In this document: in pieces, positions 4,836 to 41,560 of the stretch
Numbering within the stretch: the first letter of the stretch is position 1
Layout of the letters: each line of letters starts with the position of its first letter
Source: Cenococcum geophilum 1.58
Lineage: Eukaryota > Ascomycota > Dothideomycetes > Gloniales > Gloniaceae
DNA length: 64,000 nt
Assembly (NCBI GenBank): GCA_001692895.1
Contig: KV748187.1
Location: 612,044-676,043 of the forward strand
Reading direction: 5' to 3'
Position numbers and translations under genes: made by a program
The notes under the pieces: generated by a model
What the model saw: only the letters and a program-made list of their open reading frames with translations
Database searches by the model: none
Told to the model about the DNA's origin: nothing

Positions 4836-5001
4836 TGTCGGGAATGAGGCAAGCGGTCATCACGTGACGCCGCGGCACTAGCGTGGCGAGGAGTCTTAAG
4901 CTCCTCGCCCTTCCTTATTCCAAGAAAGAAGCTTTATTAACCAACATCACTGTAACCTACTCGAGTAGTCGTTATTGGTGAGTCACCCTATATAACCAAC
5001 A
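4836..5001 (+). repeat. 5' LTR of B1
   Basis: 166 bp, starting TGTCGGGAATGAGG and ending ACCAACA. Against the 3' LTR I count eight differences, all transitions, with no indels. It carries a GC-rich inverted segment (GCGAGGAG ... CTCCTCGC) near its middle, which could fold as a hairpin. Confidence 0.95.
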
Positions 5002-5009
5002 CTAATTAG
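5002..5009 (+). promoter_or_regulatory. Palindromic primer-binding-site position of B1
   Basis: Directly after the 5' LTR lies CTAATTAG, a perfect palindrome. RIP of CTGATCAG would produce it, and CTGATCAG occupies the same position in Copia-1 (21868-21875) and at the centre of the inverted LTR dimer (39213-39220). This is the usual place for the reverse-transcription primer site. I recognise no matching tRNA. Confidence 0.5.
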
Positions 5010-5417
5010 TGGTTAAATACACAGTCAACCACAGAGCAGCTAGGTTTTCGAACAGAAGAGACAGTCTCATATAGGGGTGCCATATACGCTTATATGGAAT
5101 GGATTCCGGCGATACTGTGCTACCTTAGACTTGCGGAAAACTAGTAACAGAAGTGTTACTAAGTACTAGGAGATACCAAGTTGCGTCTATTACGCAGAAC
5201 AACCACGTTTACGAAGATTTGGTCGAGTACTTTAGGTCAGAAGTGTCACTAAACCTACAGTCCCAAGTTAACGTCCAAAACGCGTTAAACGACGTCCAAA
5301 ACACGTTGAACAACATCTCAAATTGCCTACCTCTTAACAGCAAACCTACGAGATCCTATAAAACCGAAAATCCTACCTACCTTTGACGTACGACACCCCG
5401 TCAATTCTATACCTACC

Positions 5418-20916: not shown

Positions 20917-21643
20917 TAAGAAAACCTACGAAAGGGATATATTAGACTATTATAGTTATTAGTAGGTTATCCAGTACTGTTTGTACTAAAGAAAAATAGT
21001 AAACTAAGGCTGTATATTAACTATAGACAGTTAAACAGCATTACTAGGAAGGGTAGGTATTCTTTACCCTTAATTAGTAAAATCTAAGACAGAATAGGTA
21101 ATACACAAATCTTTATAAAGATAGATCTAAGATGGGCGTACTATTAGATTAGAATTAAGGAAGGCAATAAATAGAAAGCAGCCTTTAGGTTAAAGGAAGG
21201 ACTATATAAGCTATTAGTTATGCAATTTAGGCTTATAAACGCATTAGCAACGTTCTAAAAGCGAATTAACAATATATTAGGAGAACACTTAGATGAATTT
21301 ATTATGGTATACCTTAACGATATTATTATCTACTTAATAATTAAGGAAGAATATAGAGAATATGTTAAATGGGTCTTAAAGAGACTATAAGAGGAATAGA
21401 TGCTAGTAGTAATTAAGAAATGCGAGTTCTTTACTAGAAAGACCGATTTTGTTAAATTTATTATTAAACTAGGCCAACTTAGTATAGATCTAAAAAAGAT
21501 TAAGGTTATAGTAAATTAGTAAGAACTAGAGAATGTTATACAGTTAAGATCGTTTCTAGGGTTTTGCAATTATTGTAGAAGGTTTATAGCGCAATAGTTA
21601 AAGGATATTAAGCTATTTACGCGACTAATAAAGAAAGAAGAAC
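20917..21643 (+). pseudogene. RT pseudogene of Gypsy C1
   Basis: This continues the C1 pol frame after element D. Readable pieces in order are [42 protein letters not shown], then VYLNDIIIYL near 21309-21340. That last piece is the RT catalytic motif with the first Asp changed to Asn. The end of RT (SFLGFCNYCRRFI) is reached before Copia-1 interrupts at 21649. Fewer stops are present here than in the homologous copy Z at 35494-37138, so C1 is less mutated. Confidence 0.85.
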
Positions 21644-21648
21644 TATAG

Positions 21649-21867
21649 TGTATGATTACAGCACGTGGTATACCAAACGCGTAGTTACGCGTTTGGTGCA
21701 CCAACCACTTAGGTGCTAACTAATCAGGGGGAGGCGCGTCAGTATATAGACCACGTAGTCTACCTCGATAGAATCGACAGTCACCACCATCCAAAAGAGC
21801 ATATAATACTATACGTATTTCGTGCCCCTGGATATGACTCAATTGTATCATTAAGTTGATACAAACA
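21649..21867 (+). repeat. 5' LTR of Copia-1
   Basis: 219 bp, starting TGTATGATTACAGC and ending GATACAAACA. About four transitions and no transversions separate it from the 3' LTR. CpG-rich ACGCG motifs remain intact. Confidence 0.97.
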
Positions 21868-21875
21868 CTGATCAG
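21868..21875 (+). promoter_or_regulatory. CTGATCAG palindrome at the primer-binding position of Copia-1
   Basis: This perfect 8-bp palindrome follows the 5' LTR directly and is partly repeated as GATCAG at 21889-21894. The same eight bases form the exact centre of the inverted LTR dimer at 38944-39444. No tRNA match is recognised; its self-complementarity would allow a strand end to fold back on itself. Confidence 0.6.
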
Positions 21876-22150
21876 TGAGCGCGCACAGATCAGCAATCAC
21901 TTAACACCTCCCCCGAGCGATACACGACAGCGACCACCCGTTCAATCCTAGTACGACCTGCTAGAAGGTCGGAAGTTGGGGATTACGGACCTATCACCAA
22001 CTCTGTATACTTATTTAAGTCTTAGTACGGTTTACCGGAAGTATAATAGACGCGAACATAGACCTGTATAGAACCCCCTACTCTTAAACCTTGAACCCCT
22101 ATTCCTACTACACCCTCCTTTAATACCCCCAACCTCTCTTTAGACCCCTT

Positions 22151-25100
22151 ATGGAGACCTCTTACCCTCCTATAAAGCGTTACGGACCCGTTAATTACCT
22201 TTACGGACCGTTACGGAGACCTCTTACCCTTCCGCGAACTGTTATAGACCCGCTAACTGCCCTTACGGACTCTATAAGACCTCTACCACCCGCTATGTAC
22301 TATACTATACTACACAGTATAGCAGATATTAGTAAGCAAGTTAGTAAAGGCTAAAAGAAGTGGAGCCAGGGAGTTAACCTTACGTCCGCAAATAACATTA
22401 ATAACTATATTAAATTTAAAATCCTTAAATACAGATATTATAATTTTATAAATGACGATATATGGGAATAGTATAAAGAATACTTTGCGGACTTTACGGA
22501 AGCTATCTTTAAGACCTATAAACTTATAACTATCCGTAACCTACAAACCTTCCTCTGTAATTAAGGTGTATAGGTTAAAAAAGATAAGCGGGTTACTATC
22601 GCACAGTCTCTATATAATATATTATATAAAGAGGACTAAACAAAGTAGACTAAAGAGGAAATTTTAGACTAGGTTAAAGCCATTAAAGAACTCTTTGCTT
22701 CTTCCAAACTTAATAGGATCGCTAGCCTTATACCTAACCTACTTAACTAAATTTGTCTTATAAACCTAAGTAGTTTTAGAATTAATCTTACTAGCTAAAG
22801 TATACCTAGTACTTAAGTTACGGACCGTAATACCCCCGTAACCCAAATTACGGACTAAACCCCTCCCATTATTTAAGTTATAGACCTGCAAACCACCTAA
22901 GTAAAGACCTATAGTAAGGAGCTAGCTAACCTAGCTAAGCTCTATACCGACGAATCTAAGTATAGCGGTGAAAATGATAACTTTAACTTTAAACTAACTA
23001 TCTTTATGGACCTTTATTAGAAGGCTGATATTCCTAAACAGGAGTTTAGCTAAGCCTACTCTACCATACTACGCGGCCTAGCACTTAACTACTACTACAC
23101 TAACCTTAAGAGTAACCCCCTTGGTGTTCCCTTTAATAAGCTATACAAAGCCATATATAACTACTTTAAAGGACTAGAATATAAGCGTAATATCCTTACC
23201 TAATAAAATGCGACTAAGTTACGGACCGTAATAGATAAGAATACTGAAAAATCGACTATAGAGTGCCTGTAAATCCTTATTAAAGACCTCCGCCACCTAT
23301 AGTATAGTCTTAATATTAAGCTTTAAACGGACGACTTCCTGCACAATAAACTTATTACGGCTTACTAGGAAATAAAACCCTATAAATACGCCTATTATAA
23401 GCCCGCAGACACTATAGCTGGCCTTATTAACAATTTACGGTCCTTTATTATAACGTACAAAGCCTTAAACCCGCTAGGCAGTACTTAAGCCTTTATTACG
23501 GACCTATAAAATCCGCAAACTAACTTAGATACCTACTTTACGGACCGCCGCTACCGCTAGCAGTACCCGCATTGACTAGGTCCTACCCGCAACCCCCATA
23601 ATAACTCCCGTACAAAAGCATACCCCCGCAGATAAACTAGCTAAAAGTGCTTTATGTGTAGCAAGGAAGGATATTAGTCTATAAGGCATACCTAGAAAGA
23701 ACGTAATAAGTCTAAGAAGAGATTTAATAGACGGATTAACTAGTTTATCTTAGACTACGAAGGAGAGGAAGTAGAAGAGTCTCTTAATAAGTTAATAAAA
23801 GCCCTTACAATTAATTTTAACTCAGATATTTAGGAACAGGAGACCTTAGAGACATTCTTAACTACTTTTAGACCTTTTACGGACAGCTAAGCCTTTAATA
23901 TTACGACCGTATTAGCCGACCGCTCCTTTACACACTTAATTGCACCTAAAAACTGGCCCGTAAGCATATATATTAGACCCGTTACGGACGTTACGGACCA
24001 CGAACAGGACCTATTTGTATATATTATTATAGAACGCTATACCCCTAAAGAATTCTACGGCGTTATAATTAATATAGGTGCCTCTAAGAAGTCTACTATA
24101 GGTTACGGATAATACCTTATATATAAGACCACTATAAAGGATAATACGGACATTAATACTATGCAAACTGGGGCCGTAAATGTCCAATTTGGCATTGGCT
24201 TAACCGTATTAATTAGATTAGTTAAAGTCAAGACTCTAATTGGCCCAGTTAACTTCTATATAGTAAAAGCGGACACCCCTTTCCTACTCTACCTTGCGGA
24301 CATAGATAGACTATAGGTTTACTATAATAATGTTACGGATACCCTAATTGGCCCCGTAACTGCCCTAAGAAGTAAGAATATTACCCTACTAATTATACGA
24401 CGATTTGGACACCCGTTCCTTATATAGGGAGAGACTTTACGGACCTATATTTAGGAATCTTTTGACTATAACCCGTGCTACCTCACCAGTACAGAAATCC
24501 ACCGCCTATACCGCTGTTTCGGCCACCCATTAGCCGAAAAGCTGTATAGAGTCCTTAAACGTTCTAGATATAACGACGTTAATAGGAAGGCAATTAACCA
24601 CCTAACCAAATACTGCTCCTTCTGCCAGAAATACAGACGTTCCCTGGGCCAATTTAAGTTTACTCTTTATAAAGACTTTAATTTTAACTACTTAGTGTAC
24701 GTAGATATTATGTATATTAACGGCAGCCTAGTATTATATATAATTAACGAGGCAACCCGCTATTAAGCCGCCCGTTGGTTGCAAAATATATCTATAAAAC
24801 ATACTAGGGATATTTTACGGACCTGCTAGATTAACACATACGTTGGACCCCCTAAGTATATTACCTATAACGCTAGTAGGAACTTTATTAGTAAGGAATT
24901 CCAACAGTATGCTACGGCTATGGCTATTTTAATAAAAGCCGTTTTAGTTAAGGCATACTGGTCCGTTAGGCTTATTAAGCGAGCCTACCTAGCTCTACGG
25001 AGAGCTTACTAGATTATTACGGATGAGTGTAAGGATATCTAAAAGGAACTGGCTTTATAGATGGCCGTAAAAGCCGTTAACGACACTGCTGGCCCTAATG

Positions 25101-27241
25101 GGCTAGTACCCACCCTCTTGGTTTACGGAGCCTACCTAAGGATAAGCAACCTAGGCCCTCCTACCCCATCTATTACGGAACGAGCAGCTATAATACGGAA
25201 GGCAATAGCCGAAATAGTTAAATTACGGGCTAAATAAACTGTTAATAACGCTCTATACTACCGCAACGGACCTAATATAACCTTAGTATACAACCTCCCG
25301 CTTAATTCTATAGTCTTCGTATAGTGTAAGAGCGGCAATTAAACTGGACCTTACCGTTTACTAGCTGTAGAAGACGAAACGTACTACGTATAACTCCCTA
25401 GCAGACCAACTAGCTTTAGAAGCACGTCCATAAAACCCTATTTTTGGCCCGAATATACCTATAACGTTAAACCAGACGAACTAGAAGCACCCGCCAAACT
25501 AGATAAACTAGAAGCACCCTTACCTACTCTAGAAGTCCCCTATAAACTTACTAAACCTACTAAACCTGCCGTAAAGCGTGGTTAAGGACGCCCCTAAAAG
25601 CACCCCGTAACTAAAAACCCCGTAATAAAAAACCACCTAACCTCCGCAGACACATCCGCAAGGCAACCTCCGCCTGCGGATATATCAGTTCTAGTACAGA
25701 AAACCCCTTTTACGGACTTACAACGTAAAGAGATTAACGAACTACTTAAAAAAGGCGTCTTTGCGGTTATAATGGAGAAAGACGTTCCGCAAGGCGTCCG
25801 TATATTTAACTCGCGCTTTATTAATAAAATTAAGCACCCTGGCACTAATAAAGCCTTTAAAAAGTTAAGGCTTATTATATAAGCTTATAACGACTAGGGA
25901 AAGGACTTAGTCCTTACGCAATCGCCTATAATTTAACGAGTTAGTTAACGGATTATACTTACACTTACGCCTAGACTATAGCAAACTAAACCCATAGCCC
26001 TCTACTTACGGGATATCTTATAAGCCTACGTGCAGTCTAATACCTACCTAAGTAGGAACATTTTTATACGACTACCCCTTAAGCTTAACCTGCAACTAGG
26101 AACAATTTTATAGGTTATAAAACCCCTTTACGGAGTGCCAGAAGCTAGAAACCACTGGTTTAAGACGTACCACCAGCATTACGTCCGTAAACTTAAAACG
26201 GAACAGTTAACCTACGACCCCTGCCTTCTATACACACTATTAAACGGCCTTGGTATTATTGGACTCCAAATAGACAATACCCTCTTCTTAGCGGACCGGA
26301 CTTTTATGGACGCTAAAGAGACTAAATTATAAAGGGCTAAGTTCCTAGCAAAGCCGTAAGAGTAGTTAACTAAGTAGACCCCAATTAAGTTTAATAGAGG
26401 CTTAATTATATAAAAGGGCAACTTAATCTAGCTAACTTAGGAACGCCAAGCTTAAAACCTAAGGCTTGTTACAGCAAAGCCTATGGACCTTACTAGTTCC
26501 TATAGAGAGACCCGTAAAACCGTAAATATAAAGGACCAATACATTGTATAGCGTGTAAGAGGCGCCTATATTGCCACAGTCTGTTAACCCAAATCTGCCT
26601 ACAATTTATCCTTTACGGCCTAGGTAATAGATCTATAAGAGGAAAATACTAAGCAGCTAAATAAGCGTATTTAGTGGTAAATTGATAATGCAATAAGAGG
26701 ACTTACTTTCGTACTACTAGACCTAAATTCCCTTAGCGTACTAGTATTTACGGACGCCTCCTTTACTAATAATAAAGACCTATTATTATAAATTGGCTTT
26801 GTAATTATACTTATGGACCGTAATTAAGACGCAAATATACTGCACTGGTCTTTAATTAAATGTAAATGAGTAACCCGCAGTATACTAGCTTCTAAATTAT
26901 ACGCACTAGCCTATAGCTTTAATATAGGAGCCGCAATTAAGTTAATAATCCAGAAGATCCTATAATTAGAGCAGTTACCCCTGGTTTTATATACCGATTT
27001 AAAGTCCCTCTACGACTACCTAGTCAAACTAGGTACAACATAAGAGAAGAGGCTCATGGTCGACCTAATGTGCTTACGTCAGGCCTATAAACGACGTGAG
27101 ATTACGGAGGTTAAATGGATTAGCAGCGGAGACAACCCAGCGGACGCTATGACTAAGGTAAAGCTGTGCTAAGCTCTTAAAACCCTAATTAACACAAATA
27201 GGCTTAACCTAAGGGTTATAGAATGGGTGGAACGAGACTAA
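22151..27241 (+). pseudogene. Gag-Pol polyprotein pseudogene of Copia-1
   Basis: One frame of 1697 codons, including the stop, holds the whole polyprotein. I chose the ATG at 22151 because it opens the frame after the leader; 22295 is an in-frame alternative. Gag comes first, with a zinc knuckle near codon 500 (CFMCSKEG). A protease-like NIGASKKS follows near 24068. A pre-integrase segment (LYRCFGHPLAEKLYRV) comes next. Integrase has Asp at codon 852, but Asn at 907 and Lys at 943 where the D,D-35-E motif needs Asp and Glu. RT reads QIDN near codons 1374-1376, where the active site should have two Asp. RNase H keeps Asp at codon 1535 (TDASF). Stops are almost all Gln or Trp codons converted by transitions. 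Confidence 0.93.
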
Positions 27242-27253
27242 CGGAGCACTTAT

Positions 27254-27345
27254 GGTTCATTTACGGCCCGTCAGAAGGCCGTACGGTTTATTTACGGCCC
27301 GTTAGAAGGCCGCACGGTTTATTTTACGGACCGTAAGCAGGACTT
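27254..27345 (+). repeat. 31-bp tandem repeat at the 3' end of Copia-1
   Basis: Three units begin at 27254, 27285 and 27316 (GGTTCATTTACGGCCCG, GGTTTATTTACGGCCCG, then a diverged GGTTTATTTTACGGACCG). They lie after the stop codon and before the 3' LTR. Each contains the TTACGG core that is abundant throughout this element. Confidence 0.85.
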
Positions 27346-27488
27346 ACGGCTAGCTTAGAGCACCGTTTGGAAGGCAGCCCGGAAGGCACCTTAGGAGGGA
27401 TTTCCTATGTATTTCTTTTGTGTTTTACGGCTCTATTAAAGCAATTACAGAGGTTAGATACAAGCGAGTTATTTTCAAGTGCCGCCAG

Positions 27489-27707
27489 TGTATGATTACA
27501 GCACGTGGTATACCAAACGCGTAGTTACGCGTTTAGTGCACCAACCACTTAGGTGCTAACTAATCAGGGGGAGGCGCGTCAGTATATAGACCACGTAGTC
27601 TACCTCGATAGAATCGACAGTCACCACCATCCAAAAGAGCATACAATACTATACGTATTTCGTGCCCCTGGATATGACTCAATTGTATTATTAAGTTAAT
27701 ACAAACA
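27489..27707 (+). repeat. 3' LTR of Copia-1
   Basis: 219 bp, starting TGTATGATTACAGC and ending AATACAAACA, followed by the target duplication TATAG. No clear purine tract precedes it. Confidence 0.97.
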
Positions 27708-27712
27708 TATAG

Positions 27713-29660
27713 ATATAGGGAAAAGAATAATAAGAACTGTTTAAGAAAGTTAAGAGGTTGTTTACCTAGGAGCTAGTTCTTAAAATCTATTAACTAGGAC
27801 TAGAGACGGTTATAGAAATAGATATATTAGACTTTATACTAGGAGTATACTTTATATAAAAGCATCTAGATAGATAGCATCCAGTGGCATACTATAGTTA
27901 AAAGATAACACTACTAGAACTAAACTATAACATCTATAACAAGGAGTTATTAGGTATAGTTATAACACTAAAAAAATAAAGAGCATTCTTATAAGGTATA
28001 GAGAAACCATTTATAGTTAAAACGGATTATAAAAACCTAACGGGATTTCTAATAATAAAGGAACTTAACTAAAGACAGGTTAAATAGGCAGAGATACTTA
28101 CAAAATACTATTTTAAGATTTAGTATACTAAGGGCACAAATAACACGTAAGCTAATGCGTTAAGTAGAAAAACTAAATTACAAAATAACAAAAAGCTATT
28201 AGGGGCTTTACTATAAAAGGATATAAATAAACTAATTAGATACAATTATCCAAAAATTACAGTAACTTAGGAAGATAAGTTAGAAAGAATTTACGAGATA
28301 CTGGAAAGCTTTTAGGTATAAAGAATTCTAGAAGTATAGCTAGAAGATCTATAAGTGGATATATATAAAAACCAAAAAGTAAAGTATATCCTAAGAAGTA
28401 TAGCAGAGTACTTTATAGAAGATTTCTATAAGGGACCAACCTAAGGATATAATGGAGCTATGGGCTTAGTATTAAGACTCTAAGAGGAGTATATTATTAA
28501 TGGAATTTAGAGGATAGCTAGGAAAGTTACTAAGGAATGCTTAGATTGCTAAAGGAATAAACTAATAAGGCATAAGCTGTACAGAGGGCTATAACCTATT
28601 AAAATACTAGAGAGACCATAGGAGGTTATATTATAGGACTTTATTGTTAAGTTACTAAAGTTAAGAGACCCTATTACTGGACAAGATTATAACGCGATTT
28701 TAGTAATAGTAGATAAGCTTACAAAGTGGGGATACTTTATAGTATGCATAGAAGAAATATCAGCAGAAGATATCGCTAGAATCTATATTAAAGAAGTATT
28801 TATAAGATATAAAGTATTAAGTAAGATTATATTAGATAGAGATCTAAGATTTATAGTAGCATTCTAAGAGGTATTCTTAGCGGAATAAGGAGTTAGAGTA
28901 GTAACTTTTACTATATATTATCCGCAAACAGACGGTTAAATAGAGAGATTAAATTAGACACTAGAATAGTATCTAAGATATTATATTAATCACGCATAGA
29001 ATAATTAGGTATCGCTATTACTAGTTATATAGTTTATATATAACGCGACACCATAAGAGGGAATAGGCACTTTACTATTTAAGGCGAATTATAGATATAA
29101 GCTAAAAACATTATTATCGCCACGTTAAGTAAAGAAGACGAGTAGTACAGCTAAATAAAGAATGGAGACTTTAATAAATCTTTATATAAACCTTATAGAA
29201 ACAGCTAAGGTAGTATAGCAAAGAATAAAAAAATACTACGATGCTAGGAGATCTAAGGGACCAGATCTTAAGGAGGGAGATAAAGTGTAGCTACTATATA
29301 AGAATTTCAAAAGTTGATAACTAAGTAAGAAGTTAGACTACGTCAAACTAGGACCTTTTAAAATCATGCAGAAGTTTTTATCGGTTACGTTTAAGTTAAA
29401 ACTACTAGCTAAAATAAAAATCTACCCTATACAGCATATTATAATGCTAGAGCCAGTATACGGGAATGTTAAGCCACTAATCTATAAAGAAGACACGTAT
29501 AGAGGATAGAAAGAGAATAAATGGTAAGTTTTAAGGATTATTAGTTATAAGGATATAGATAATGAAATATAGTATAAAGTAAAGTAGATAGGCTATACTA
29601 AGACTACCTAGGAGCTATTAAAGAATCTAAAGAACGCTATAGGAAAGGTATAGGAGTATT
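27713..29660 (+). pseudogene. RNase H, integrase and chromodomain pseudogene of Gypsy C1
   Basis: This continues C1 after Copia-1. RNase H remnants cover about 27790-28160. The integrase core is readable: DFIVKLLKLRDPITGQDYN near 28639 (first Asp), SKIILDRDLRFIVAF near 28819 (second Asp) and TDG-IERLN near 28931 (Glu present, a stop in between). DARRSKGPDLKEGDKV marks the C-terminal part (about 29243-29290). A chromodomain follows at about 29535-29640 (YKDIDNEIQYKVK, then IGYTKTTQELLK with Gln/Trp codons as stops). The rest to 30400 is 3' non-coding sequence without recognisable content. Confidence 0.85.
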
Positions 29661-37781: not shown

Positions 37782-38943
37782 GGCGTTAACCTATCTAAAG
37801 AAGTACGAGAAGGATATTAACCCGGAAATATAGAATACTAATATAATTAACTTTACAAACGGTAAGTAATAAGACTTAAATGGATTCTTATTATACCATA
37901 TAGTATACTATAAAGACAGCGAATACAATAACACTATGCTATAGTACTATATAAGGGAGGATTTTATTAAATAGATAAAGGGAACATAGACTCCTATAAA
38001 GAAGGATATTATATAAGACTTCCGTAACTTCTTATAGGAGTATAAAGTGTTTATACCTATAGACGGGGGTACTATTAGAGACAATATTTAGGAGTAGGTT
38101 ATTAATATAAAAGAAGAGCATAAATAGACTCTATAAGAGATTAAGCACCAACTACGCACTATAAGGAAGCTTAACTTATAATAGAATCTAAATATTACAC
38201 CTCTAAAGACAAATCTACCTCCGCCTTTAACTCCTCTATATCTAATTTAACCTATAACTTTAACGTCAAATACTATATCCTAATAAGAGCAGGCACAGGA
38301 TCCTATTACTTTACAATTTAATAACCTTTAGACTCTACTAATTAGACCTACGTCTTTACTACAGCCTACAATGTAACTCTTATCTCCTCTATCTTAATCT
38401 TAAATTGGAGGTAGTTTAAAATTACTTATAGAGCTCGCGAAGCTCTATTTAGATTAGGAGAAGAAGTTTAGCGGGGAACTATATAATGTTCTTAATTTAA
38501 AACTATATATCTTCTATAACTATTACTAAAAAGTAGAAATAGAGTCTAACTAATACTACAACGCCTATTCTGTTATGCTTAAAGGTTAAGCTAGTACCTT
38601 CTATTATAATTATTTAGCAGGAAAAGATATAATTTTAACCATATAATATATAAGTTAAGATANNACTTTAAAATANAAGAGAATAANTAGNAGTATATAT
38701 TAGAATANAGAGAGACTACCTTNNTAAGGATTATTNCTANAAACCTAGGTATCCCTCGGCTTAATTATCTTTAAAAGCTCTTTAATTAACTTTAGACGAT
38801 TTAGCGTAGTTTATCCAAATTATATTAAGAGGATTTCAGCCTACGTAATTAAGTTATTAGCGTATATTAAGGTATTAAAGAATATAACCTTACTCTCTTT
38901 AATCCTATAAATACTTATAAAGGTATATATACTTAATTAAGAT
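37782..38943 (+). pseudogene. Gag pseudogene of B2
   Basis: It starts near ATGGCGTTAACCTATC (37782) and matches B1 Gag for roughly 125 codons (KKYEKDIN, LNGFLL, KDSEYNNT, FIPIDGGTI). Unlike B1 it has no Pro/Gln minisatellites. It continues with a Copia-type Gag segment (for example KYYILIRAGTGSYYF and YVSTTAYNV-like pieces, 38260-38380). N bases lie at 38660-38740. The frame is cut at 38943 by the inverted LTR dimer and resumes after 39449. Many stops are present. Confidence 0.75.
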
Positions 38944-39444
38944 TGTATAATTACAGCACCTGTCGTACTAACCGCGTGCTTACGCGTTCGGTACGCCGAG
39001 TACGCGTTTACGCGTTTGGTGCACCAACCACCCGCTTACGCGTCTGGTGCACTTCTGAAGCACTAACTAATCAGGGGGGAAGGCGCATCAGTATATAGAC
39101 TACGTAGTCTGCTTTATACAATCGACAGTCACCATCTAAACAAGCATACGATACTACATGTATTTCGTGCCCGTGGATACGACTCACTCGTGCTATTAAG
39201 TTAGTACGAACACTGATCAGTGTTCGTACTAACTTAATAGCACGAGTGAGTCGTGGTGACTGTCGATTGTATAAAGCAGACTACGTAGTCTATATACTGA
39301 TGCGCCTTCCCCCCTGATTAGTTAGTGCTTTAGAAGTGCACCAGACGCGTAAGCGGGTGGTTGGTGCACCAAACGCGTAAACGCGTACTCGGCGTACCGA
39401 ACGCGTAAGCACGCGGTTGGTACGACAGGTGCTGTAATTATACA
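38944..39444. mobile_element. Palindromic inverted LTR dimer inserted as one unit
   Basis: Left arm 38944-39212 (269 bp, TGTATAATTACAGC to GTACGAACA), centre CTGATCAG (39213-39220), right arm 39221-39444, which is the reverse complement of the left arm minus 45 bp. AAGAT flanks it on both sides (38939-38943 and 39445-39449). Both outer ends are the same LTR terminus. Apart from the 45-bp gap I see only about two differences between the arms, both transitions. The arms are related to the Copia-1 LTR. There is no coding sequence. RIP is light compared with the surrounding B2. Confidence 0.95.
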
Positions 39445-39449
39445 AAGAT

Positions 39450-41560
39450 CTTCTATTAGCACCACTCTACGCTCTTAAAAAGTATAGTAATTTAACGCCT
39501 AACTTTAACCTACTTTAATCAACCTGCCTAACCAATATAATTATAACTAAACTAATTAAATATATAGTGGCCGTAGTAGGCAATACGGTAAAGGGTATAA
39601 TTAACAATTATAAGATAAAGGTGGAGGTCCTTATAGAGGCTCATTTTAAAGTAATTACTAGAAGAAGTGCTATCTTTGTAAGAAACCGAATTACTAATTA
39701 ACTAGGCATTTTCTTAATAAACAAAAGGAGGTATATAATAAGTTTCGCTAAAGTATAAGAAATATTAGAAATTATAAGGTTACTACGGCCTACTTTTAAA
39801 GCTTCCTAGTTTAATATAAAGGCGTAGAAGATCTTAAGGATAAGGTTAATAAGGCTAAACAGCTCCTTATAGATATAGAAATTAAGGACTACTTACCCAA
39901 CCAATACTTTACTAAGTATAGTAAGGTAGATAGTATATAAACTATTACTATTCTTAATAACTAATCTATACTCTATTCTATTACGAAGTTAAATATCTTT
40001 AATAAGCTAAAGGAGAGCTCCATGTTCTCCTTTAACAATAGATACTCAGTAAATATCTTTTATAGTATTATACCAGATACTAGAGCCGTAGGAGTATTTA
40101 TAGTAGGAGAACCTTAAGTTCGAGCCCTTTAATAACTTAATACCTCTATCTAAATTAACTAATTAACGGTAGGCTAATATATAATACGTTTTAGCAAGGG
40201 TACCGTAATCTCTTTTAGCATAATTAGGGTCCAAACCCCCTTAGGGCGCATTACTTTCTATATTATTCCTATAAATACCCTATTTTTATTTTATATCAGA
40301 GATATAAACAAATTAAGTATTAAGCTTAATAACCTTAAGAATATACTCGTATAGGGAGATAATTAGGTACCTATTATACGCAAATAGGATTACCCTTAGT
40401 TACTCCTTTATTAACTAAAAAAGAGTATTGCTTAAAGCTACCTAACTAAGTTAGAGTTACGTTAACTATACCGTTAATTTAGCCACCTATCTGTTTATTA
40501 ATTACTTAGGGTTCTTTAGTAAGTAGGCTATAAAGTTAAGGTTAAGGCAATTAAGCATCTTATAAAATACTACTATCACTACTAAATAAACTAGAAGTCC
40601 CCTAGCCGATTTAAGTTCACCCTTAAAGATAACTATAACTTTAACTTCTATATTATTGTTAACGTTATATATCTTAGCGGCAAGCCAGTACTCTAAGTTA
40701 TTAACTTTTTAACCTTCTTCTAAGCTGTATAATTCTTAAAGGATATATTAGCTAGGAACGTATGGGATACCCTTTAATTATACTAGATTAATATCTACTT
40801 AGGACCCCCTAATTAAATCGTCTATAACGTAGAAAAGAACTTCTTATTTATAGAGTTTTAATAATAGATAAAGGCAATAGCAATTAAGGTTAAGGAAGTC
40901 CCTATTAAGGTATATAATAGCGTTAGAAAAATAGAGCAATATTATATACCATTACGCCGCGTATATAAGATTATCTCTTTAGAACTAAAGGACGCTAGCG
41001 AAAAACTTACCTTATAAATAGCTATTAAAGCCATTAATAATTCTATTAGCCCAGATAGACTTATATCCATATTACTAGTCTTTAGCACCTACCCTTAAAT
41101 AACTAATAATTCTTTACTATCTCCCTCCATTATATAATAAGCTAAGGCTATTTATAAGGTAATAAAGAAGGTGCGATATCTCTACGCTATACGTTAGGTT
41201 AATAACGCACTAGGAATAAGAAATGGCCCAAATACCTTAACTACGCTCGATCTGCCACTTTAGTTTAAGGTACGCATATAGCGTAAAAAGGGAGGATAGT
41301 TAGGCCTATATTAACTTATTATAATTAATAGTTAAACTTATACTATTTAGATACCTTACAGACCCACTTAATTCCATTTAACTATTATTAAGCCTTATTA
41401 TAAAGATAATAGTCTTAAGCCTTTATAGGATGCCCTAGATAATGCCTTAAAGGAAAACCATAATTAACGTGCTTTAGAAGGCGACTACAATTCTAATATA
41501 ATTATAGTAGATATGCCGCAACTATAACGCGGTAAAGGTCGCCCAAAAGGATTATAAAAT
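39450..41560 (+). pseudogene. Gag end, protease and integrase pseudogene of B2
   Basis: A zinc-knuckle remnant lies near 39662-39700 (CYLCKKPNY). A degraded protease region follows near 40060-40090 (SIIPDTRAVGVF). A pre-integrase segment lies near 40440-40510 (KLELRQLYR-like with stops, then HLSVY). The integrase core spans about 40640-41060: the first catalytic Asp reads Asn (IVNVIYLSGKPVL), the second also reads Asn or is lost (IVYNVEKNF), and the Glu region reads RKIEQYY. The Copia integrase C-terminus follows (INNSISPDRLISILLVF, then VNNALGIRNGPNT). Stops are mostly Gln/Trp type. Confidence 0.83.

What the first reader, a model, noticed from the sequence alone, without database searches (positions are those of the whole stretch)
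38939..39449. Inverted LTR dimer joined at CTGATCAG and integrated with a 5-bp target duplication
Seen: an LTR, then CTGATCAG, then the same LTR in reverse (with a 45-bp deletion), flanked by AAGAT on both sides. Known: LTR integrases act on the outer LTR ends and leave short target duplications. Inference: the unit was integrated as linear DNA with two identical LTR ends. The eight central bases are exactly the first bases after the LTR in Copia-1. A DNA strand ending there could fold on its own palindrome and copy itself back, giving an LTR fold-back element with no internal genes. RIP is light, so the event is fairly recent.
Basis: partly seen in the sequence, partly recalled or inferred. 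Interest (0 to 1): 0.88.

Follow-up and report, generated by a model that had tools for sequence, protein, structure and literature searches.

The report
Palindromic double-LTR retrotransposon by-product
A fungal jumping gene left behind a mirror-image pair of its own end repeats, glued at an 8-base palindrome and inserted like a normal copy; at least four such units occur in this genome, and they look like physical traces of a copying step in these elements that has not been explained.

Summary
Confirmed and extended. Window 38944-39444 is a complete 269-bp LTR, CTGATCAG, then the same LTR inverted (224 bp, one private 45-bp deletion), flanked by AAGAT on both sides. The flanks belong to a repeat: 40 of 40 scored paralogues (1234 candidates) align across the joined flanks, and 6 of 6 fetched ones carry one AAGAT, so the unit is a true insertion. 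CTGATCAG is the first 8 bases of palindromic CHSeq1 of fungal GalEa Copia elements, which are reported to lack a primer-binding site; the palindrome's role is unexplained there. A genome search for the RIP-tolerant palindromic centre gave 23 sites; 4 are inverted LTR dimers of four LTR families, all with perfect 5-bp target duplications. Two more were tested for and have empty paralogous sites. Best explanation: plus-strand strong-stop DNA ending in CHSeq1 pairs with a second copy, each 3' end copies the other, and integrase inserts the product with two U3 ends. This makes the open question of GalEa priming testable. Nine full-text searches with capped listings showed no earlier report. Dimers with other junctions could not be searched.

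The parts
38939..38943 (.). left copy of the 5-bp target site duplication AAGAT
   Evidence: a single copy in 6 of 6 fetched empty paralogous sites
38944..39212 (+). complete LTR (269 bp, TGTATAAT...GAACA) of a GalEa-type Copia family; left arm
   Evidence: up to 97% identical to LTRs elsewhere, and one search lists several pairs of such LTRs 5.9-6.0 kb apart on one strand
39213..39220 (.). centre CTGATCAG = first 8 nt of CHSeq1, the palindrome that follows the 5' LTR in ordinary copies
   Evidence: CHSeq1 defined in PMC5445492
39221..39444 (-). the same LTR inverted (224 bp); lacks 45 bp present in the left arm; two transitions
   Evidence: deletion junction at one place only in the genome
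39445..39449 (.). right copy of the target site duplication AAGAT
38800..38938 (.). left flank: part of an unrelated multicopy repeat into which the unit inserted (stretch tested; the repeat may reach further)
   Evidence: 40 of 40 scored paralogues span the joined flanks (query 1-292 or 1-294 of 294, 92-95%)
39450..39599 (.). right flank: continuation of the same host repeat (stretch tested)
21649..27707 (+). ordinary GalEa-type copy in the same window (two direct LTRs, TSD TATAG, CHSeq1 and CHSeq2 after the 5' LTR); comparison copy, not part of the dimer

Best explanation
The unit is an integrated inverted LTR dimer, a dead-end by-product of reverse transcription by a fungal GalEa Copia retrotransposon. 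SHOWN: two LTRs (U3 ends outward) joined at the CHSeq1 palindrome, inserted into an older repeat with a 5-bp duplication; the same architecture in four LTR families of this genome. INFERRED: plus-strand strong-stop DNA is made as LTR followed by a copy of CHSeq1 (about 8-10 nt). Because CHSeq1 plus the last bases of the LTR is self-complementary (CACTGATCAGTG), two such strands in one particle, or less likely one strand folding on itself, pair at their 3' ends instead of pairing with the minus strand. Each 3' end is then extended along the other LTR. The product is a linear duplex LTR-CTGATCAG-LTR' with an authentic U3 terminus at both ends, and the element's integrase inserts it as if it were a full copy. 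The right-arm deletion is a private slip during that copying or later.
For: Exact anatomy and TSD. Empty sites: 40 of 40 scored paralogues span the join, 6 of 6 fetched have one AAGAT. Three further dimers among the other 22 palindrome sites: L043 (C9, 178/178-bp arms, TSD ACCCC), L050 (C41, 174/174, TSD CTAAT), L051 (C56, 244/221, TSD GAACC). The four arms are different LTR families; only L043 and L051 share end segments. L043 and L050 also have empty paralogues, 3 of 3 fetched each. Outside the 8-bp centre the arms of a dimer differ only by transitions (2, 2, 11, 5) and by one indel in each of two dimers. Ordinary copies of three of the four families (window, L043, L050) carry CHSeq1 and CHSeq2 after the 5' LTR. 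As I read the lists (40 scored places each, of 474, 193 and 330 candidates), no dimer around the whole hairpin appears. Model pairing energies favour the duplex over the single-strand hairpin. Ordinary copies on C58, C47 and in the window also have 5-bp TSDs.
Against: No intermediate was observed; the strand that paired is inferred. The same final sequence could come from end joining of two cDNAs at the palindrome, from RNA-level priming at CHSeq1, or from a 6-nt tail (CTGATC) pairing over 4 bases. Model energies alone do not pick CHSeq1: a tail with the whole hairpin site pairs even better (-24.2 as dimer, -5.8 as hairpin), yet no such dimer was seen in the capped lists. The 45-bp and 23-bp arm differences are not explained by clean copying. 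RIP limits reading of single bases: the base after CHSeq1 in the L050 family (A in two ordinary copies, G in the dimer) suggests that the strand ended inside CHSeq1, but RIP could have made that A. Both searches with a variable gap did not complete, so dimers with other centres may exist, and the search that found these four was itself built on this palindrome.
Confidence: 0.72

Rival explanations
1. Palindrome-primed reverse transcription. CHSeq1 of one RNA pairs with CHSeq1 of a second RNA (or a cleaved leader) and primes minus-strand synthesis there; copying the leader primer later gives LTR-CTGATCAG-U5'-R', which snaps back and is completed to a full inverted dimer. The dimer would then be a direct signature of normal GalEa priming.
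For: The palindrome is reported as conserved and no primer site was found in fungal GalEa. All four dimers keep A at CHSeq1 position 7, which disfavours seven or more bases copied from CHSeq2. The 45-bp deletion lies downstream of a TATA-like stretch, near where R might begin (TATA and R position are my inference).
Against: No primer or RNA end is known; needs an unproved cleavage after CHSeq1; the deletion position is a single case, and the 23-bp indel of L051 lies elsewhere, in a tandem repeat.
Confidence: 0.15
2. End joining or recombination. Two cDNAs (or two genomic copies in opposite orientation) broken in the hairpin site were joined head to head at the palindrome by microhomology.
For: Microhomology of 8-12 bases exists; the hairpin could be a nuclease target (inference).
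Against: For genomic copies the two outer flanks would come from two different insertions, but 4 of 4 dimers have matching 5-bp duplications and 3 of 3 tested have contiguous empty sites. Joining of two cDNAs before integration is not excluded.
Confidence: 0.08
3. Foldback DNA transposon or MITE that resembles an LTR.
For: Long terminal inverted repeats and a TSD.
Against: Arms are LTRs found elsewhere in ordinary copies; centre is CHSeq1; the window dimer's deletion junction is single copy, so this unit has not multiplied.
Confidence: 0.01
4. Assembly or library artefact (fold-back chimera).
For: Palindromes are known trouble for assembly; the window holds isolated N bases nearby; no reads were available.
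Against: An artefact would not create a 5-bp duplication, four times in four families, with single-copy targets in 12 of 12 fetched paralogous sites (one with a base changed).
Confidence: 0.01

Closest known systems
Fungal GalEa Copia retrotransposons with a Conserved Hairpin Site (PMC5445492; passages and one section read)
   Different: The dimer has no internal region, no CHSeq2, no second direct LTR; the parts of the paper that I read do not mention inverted LTR dimers
Solo LTR (general knowledge)
   Same: LTR-only remnant with TSD
   Different: Solo LTRs come from recombination between direct LTRs after insertion; here two LTRs lie inverted around CHSeq1 and must have been joined before insertion
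TRIM / other non-autonomous LTR elements (general knowledge; a TRIM paper, PMC6934838, seen in a listing only)
   Same: short, gene-less, mobilised by another element's enzymes
   Different: those have direct LTRs plus primer site and polypurine tract and can be copied again; the dimer has inverted LTRs and neither feature between them
2-LTR circle junctions with a palindrome (retroviruses; PMC1180852 and PMC1905944 seen in search listings only)
   Same: LTR-LTR palindromic DNA discussed as an integrase substrate
   Different: there, by general knowledge, the LTRs are in direct order with only the junction ends palindromic; here whole LTRs are inverted and the unit is chromosomal
Self-priming elements of the Tf1 type (as described in passages of PMC5445492)
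   Same: reverse transcription without a tRNA, guided by the element's own complementary sequence
   Different: Tf1 uses complementarity of the primer site to the mRNA 5' end; that paper detected none in fungal GalEa

Membership tests
Product of fungal GalEa Copia elements | LTRs bordered by TGT and CA, 138-311 bp | tested here: met
   left arms 269, 178, 174, 244 bp, all TGT...ACA
Product of fungal GalEa Copia elements | 5-bp target site duplication | tested here: met
   4 of 4 dimers; also the ordinary copies on C58, C47 and in the window
Product of fungal GalEa Copia elements | CHSeq1 palindrome after the 5' LTR and CHSeq2 downstream with A/A mismatch in ordinary copies | tested here: met
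   for the families of the window dimer, L043 and L050; the pattern used fixes the mismatch, so its strictness was not tested; no ordinary copy of the L051 family was examined
Product of fungal GalEa Copia elements | GalEa coding motifs (HHCC, RT motifs) in the parent element | tested here: inconclusive
   The piece of parent copy C69 read is broken by stops; one fragment matches GAG-pre-integrase (20.2 bits, cut-off 28.4) and Integrase_H2C2 (18.5, cut-off 25.5), both below cut-off; the other four fragments scanned gave no Pfam match; only degraded look-alikes of the published RT motifs were seen by eye
Solo LTR | a single LTR flanked by a TSD | tested here: not met
   two inverted LTRs around CHSeq1
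TRIM | two direct LTRs with primer site and polypurine tract | tested here: not met
   LTRs inverted, only 8 bp between them
MITE / foldback DNA transposon | multiple copies of the same unit moved by a transposase | tested here: not met
   for the window unit: deletion junction single copy, exact palindromic centre single copy; not tested separately for the other three

The most novel reading that the evidence does not exclude
Inverted LTR dimers are the signature of an undescribed, palindrome-based priming or strand-transfer mechanism of fungal GalEa retrotransposons: CHSeq1 acts as its own partner, element copies prime on or pair with each other at this palindrome, and mis-pairing of the same step yields LTR-CHSeq1-LTR' units that integrase spreads through the genome. 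Each unit also carries LTR promoters pointing inward, so it could be transcribed into a hairpin RNA against its parent LTRs.
Probability: 0.2. Interest if true: 0.9.

Novelty: new variant of a known kind. Interest (0 to 1): 0.72.

Why it matters
GalEa elements are reported to fill about a tenth of the Cenococcum geophilum genome, yet how they start reverse transcription without a primer-binding site is unexplained; the authors who described the palindrome say that, to their knowledge, no described model fits. The dimers look like chromosomal fossils of a DNA intermediate whose 3' end lay in or at that palindrome. They point to CHSeq1 as the functional equivalent of the primer-binding site and give a cheap readout: count CHSeq1-centred dimers in any GalEa-bearing fungus. 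They also suggest that a GalEa integrase accepts DNA with two U3 ends in vivo, and they define a kind of LTR-derived inverted repeat that LTR finders built on direct repeats would pass over (general knowledge).

Tried and rejected
Considered and rejected: assembly artefact, foldback DNA transposon, two independent solo LTRs, recombination between genomic copies (reasons under rivals). Tested whether the right arm came from a second genomic template that carries the 45-bp deletion: the junction was found nowhere else. Tested whether the two arm differences mark subfamilies: position 26 is C/T/N in 11/4/1 and position 114 G/A/gap in 8/8/1 of the aligned stretches of fetched LTRs, so RIP and standing variation cannot be told apart. 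A tRNA primer for CACTGATCAG was considered; I recalled none and the GalEa paper reports no primer site, so it was not searched. The related centre pattern AYACTSATSAGTRT gave 5 sites, 2 of them new and neither a dimer. One of the 19 non-dimer sites, L055, has an AT-rich inverted self-match (72-383, 65%) whose axis is not at the palindrome. The window's own Copia region has no stop-to-stop frame of 120 aa. The protein search with one fragment gave 72 relatives, unnamed or 'hypothetical', and no mechanism. One search was a script that stopped on an error of mine; one search is its repeat.

Not answered: TACGAAYAN{0,30}TRTTCGTA (8 tries) and CTRATYAGTN{3,33}AYAGATYAGTRT (3 tries); 'busy or cannot be reached' each time. 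I rely instead on what searches list, which is weaker. I spent the last two genome searches on empty sites.

Full report
What is there. The window holds AAGAT (38939-38943), a complete 269-bp LTR (38944-39212), CTGATCAG (39213-39220), the same LTR inverted and 45 bp shorter (39221-39444), and AAGAT again (39445-39449). Besides the 45-bp gap the arms differ by two transitions, one in a CpA and one in a TpG context, as repeat-induced point mutation (RIP) gives.

It is a real insertion. The joined flanks without the unit match other places in the 177-Mb genome: 40 of the 40 scored, out of 1234 first-look candidates, from base 1 to base 292 or 294 of 294, at 92-95%. Six were fetched; all six read AAGAT once at the join. 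The unit therefore entered an older repeat and duplicated five bases.

What the centre is. Ordinary copies of the family continue after the LTR with CTGATCAGTGAGCGCGCACAGATCAG or RIP variants of it. This is the Conserved Hairpin Site of fungal GalEa Copia elements: CHSeq1 (CTGATCAGT or CTAATTAGT in 85% of families), palindromic with the last A of the LTR, and CHSeq2, its inverse complement with an A/A mismatch. The paper (PMC5445492; I read the passages found and one section) states that these elements show no putative primer-binding site, that to the authors' knowledge no described model fits the site, and that the role of the palindrome is difficult to predict. It gives 10.40% GalEa in a 177.57-Mb Cenococcum geophilum genome; G000 has 177.19 Mb. 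That G000 is this fungus is my inference.

It is not alone. The exact centre ACACTGATCAGTGT occurs at one place. Allowing RIP changes (AYACTRATYAGTRT) gives 23 places and none for the reversed control. I fetched all 22 others. Over the first 40 bases outward from the centre, ungapped, three have arms 93-97% complementary and the other 19 have 28-47%. The three are L043 (arms 178/178, ACCCC twice), L050 (174/174, CTAAT twice) and L051 (244/221, GAACC twice). Their arms are different LTR families from the window's; L043 and L051 share only 18 bases at one end and about 36 (86%) at the other. Copies with the same LTR end as L043 (L052, L071) and L050 (L069, L070) have CHSeq1 and CHSeq2 after the LTR. 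Empty sites: for L050, 26 of 30 matches span the join (25 cover query 3-333 or more, one covers 2-256; 80-96%), and the other four are the dimer's own two flanks and two partial matches; for L043, 40 of 40 scored of 756 candidates. Three of each were fetched: all contiguous, five with the exact target, one (L077) with one base different. L051 was not tested in this way. Outside the 8-bp centres the arms of all four dimers differ by 20 transitions, no transversion, and one indel each in two dimers.

How it works. An LTR dimer with U3 ends outward and CHSeq1 in the middle must have been joined before integration. The simplest source is plus-strand strong-stop DNA, which by general knowledge of LTR retrotransposons runs through the LTR into the copied primer site. 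If that site is CHSeq1, the 3' end is self-complementary. In the model, two strands with tails of 8-10 nt pair with -8.9 to -15.7 kcal/mol, one strand on itself with 0 to -1.7; a tail carrying the whole hairpin site would pair better still (-24.2 as dimer, -5.8 alone), so energy alone does not choose CHSeq1. The sequences do suggest that the pairing end did not run far past it: bases after CHSeq1 in ordinary copies depart from the dimer at position 11 (window family), 11 or 13 (L043 family) and 10 (L050 family, if that A is not RIP). As I read the lists, no place among the 40 scored in each of the three centre searches shows a dimer around the whole hairpin, though those lists are truncated. 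All four centres keep A at CHSeq1 position 7, which speaks against a copy of seven or more bases of CHSeq2, not against a 6-base copy. These points favour CHSeq1 as the functional primer site, without naming the primer.

Limits. No reads, no cDNA, no second fungal genome were available. The two searches for dimers with other junctions did not complete (11 tries, listed under Tried and rejected), so four is a lower bound, the search was biased to this centre, and the link to the palindrome lacks its best control, the rate in families without one. The parent copy examined is broken by stops; the GalEa assignment rests on LTR, duplication and hairpin site more than on protein motifs.

Literature. 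Nine searches of the open-access library listed no paper whose title or abstract start reports integrated inverted LTR dimers. Several listings were capped (20 of 95, 15 of 37, 25 of 40,759, 30 of 71). Apart from parts of PMC5445492 I saw listings only. Subscription journals are not covered.

Verdict.

Noticed in passing
window 21649-27707: Ordinary GalEa-type Copia copy with direct LTRs, TSD TATAG, CHSeq1 and CHSeq2; its LTR is about 76-78% identical to the dimer LTR, and 21600-28400 has no stop-to-stop frame of 120 aa.
   Followed up: partly
window 4990-5030: CACTAATTAGTG preceded by ...ACCAA, possibly the end of another LTR with a CHSeq1 variant; no clear CHSeq2 follows.
   Followed up: no
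L026 (C62, match at contig 26307-26350): Copy with the usual LTR end, CHSeq1, loop and CHSeq2, but different sequence directly after CHSeq2, as if the leader were joined to another body.
   Followed up: no
L042 (C7:500412-501112): LTR end of the window family followed by a CHSeq1 variant but with no CHSeq2 match within 33 bases.
   Followed up: no
L051 (C56:299027-299727): Dimer arms differ by 23 bp inside a short tandem repeat of the LTR, a likely slippage.
   Followed up: partly
window 38663-38740: Isolated N bases about 200-280 bases left of the unit, suggesting uncertain consensus in this repeat.
   Followed up: no
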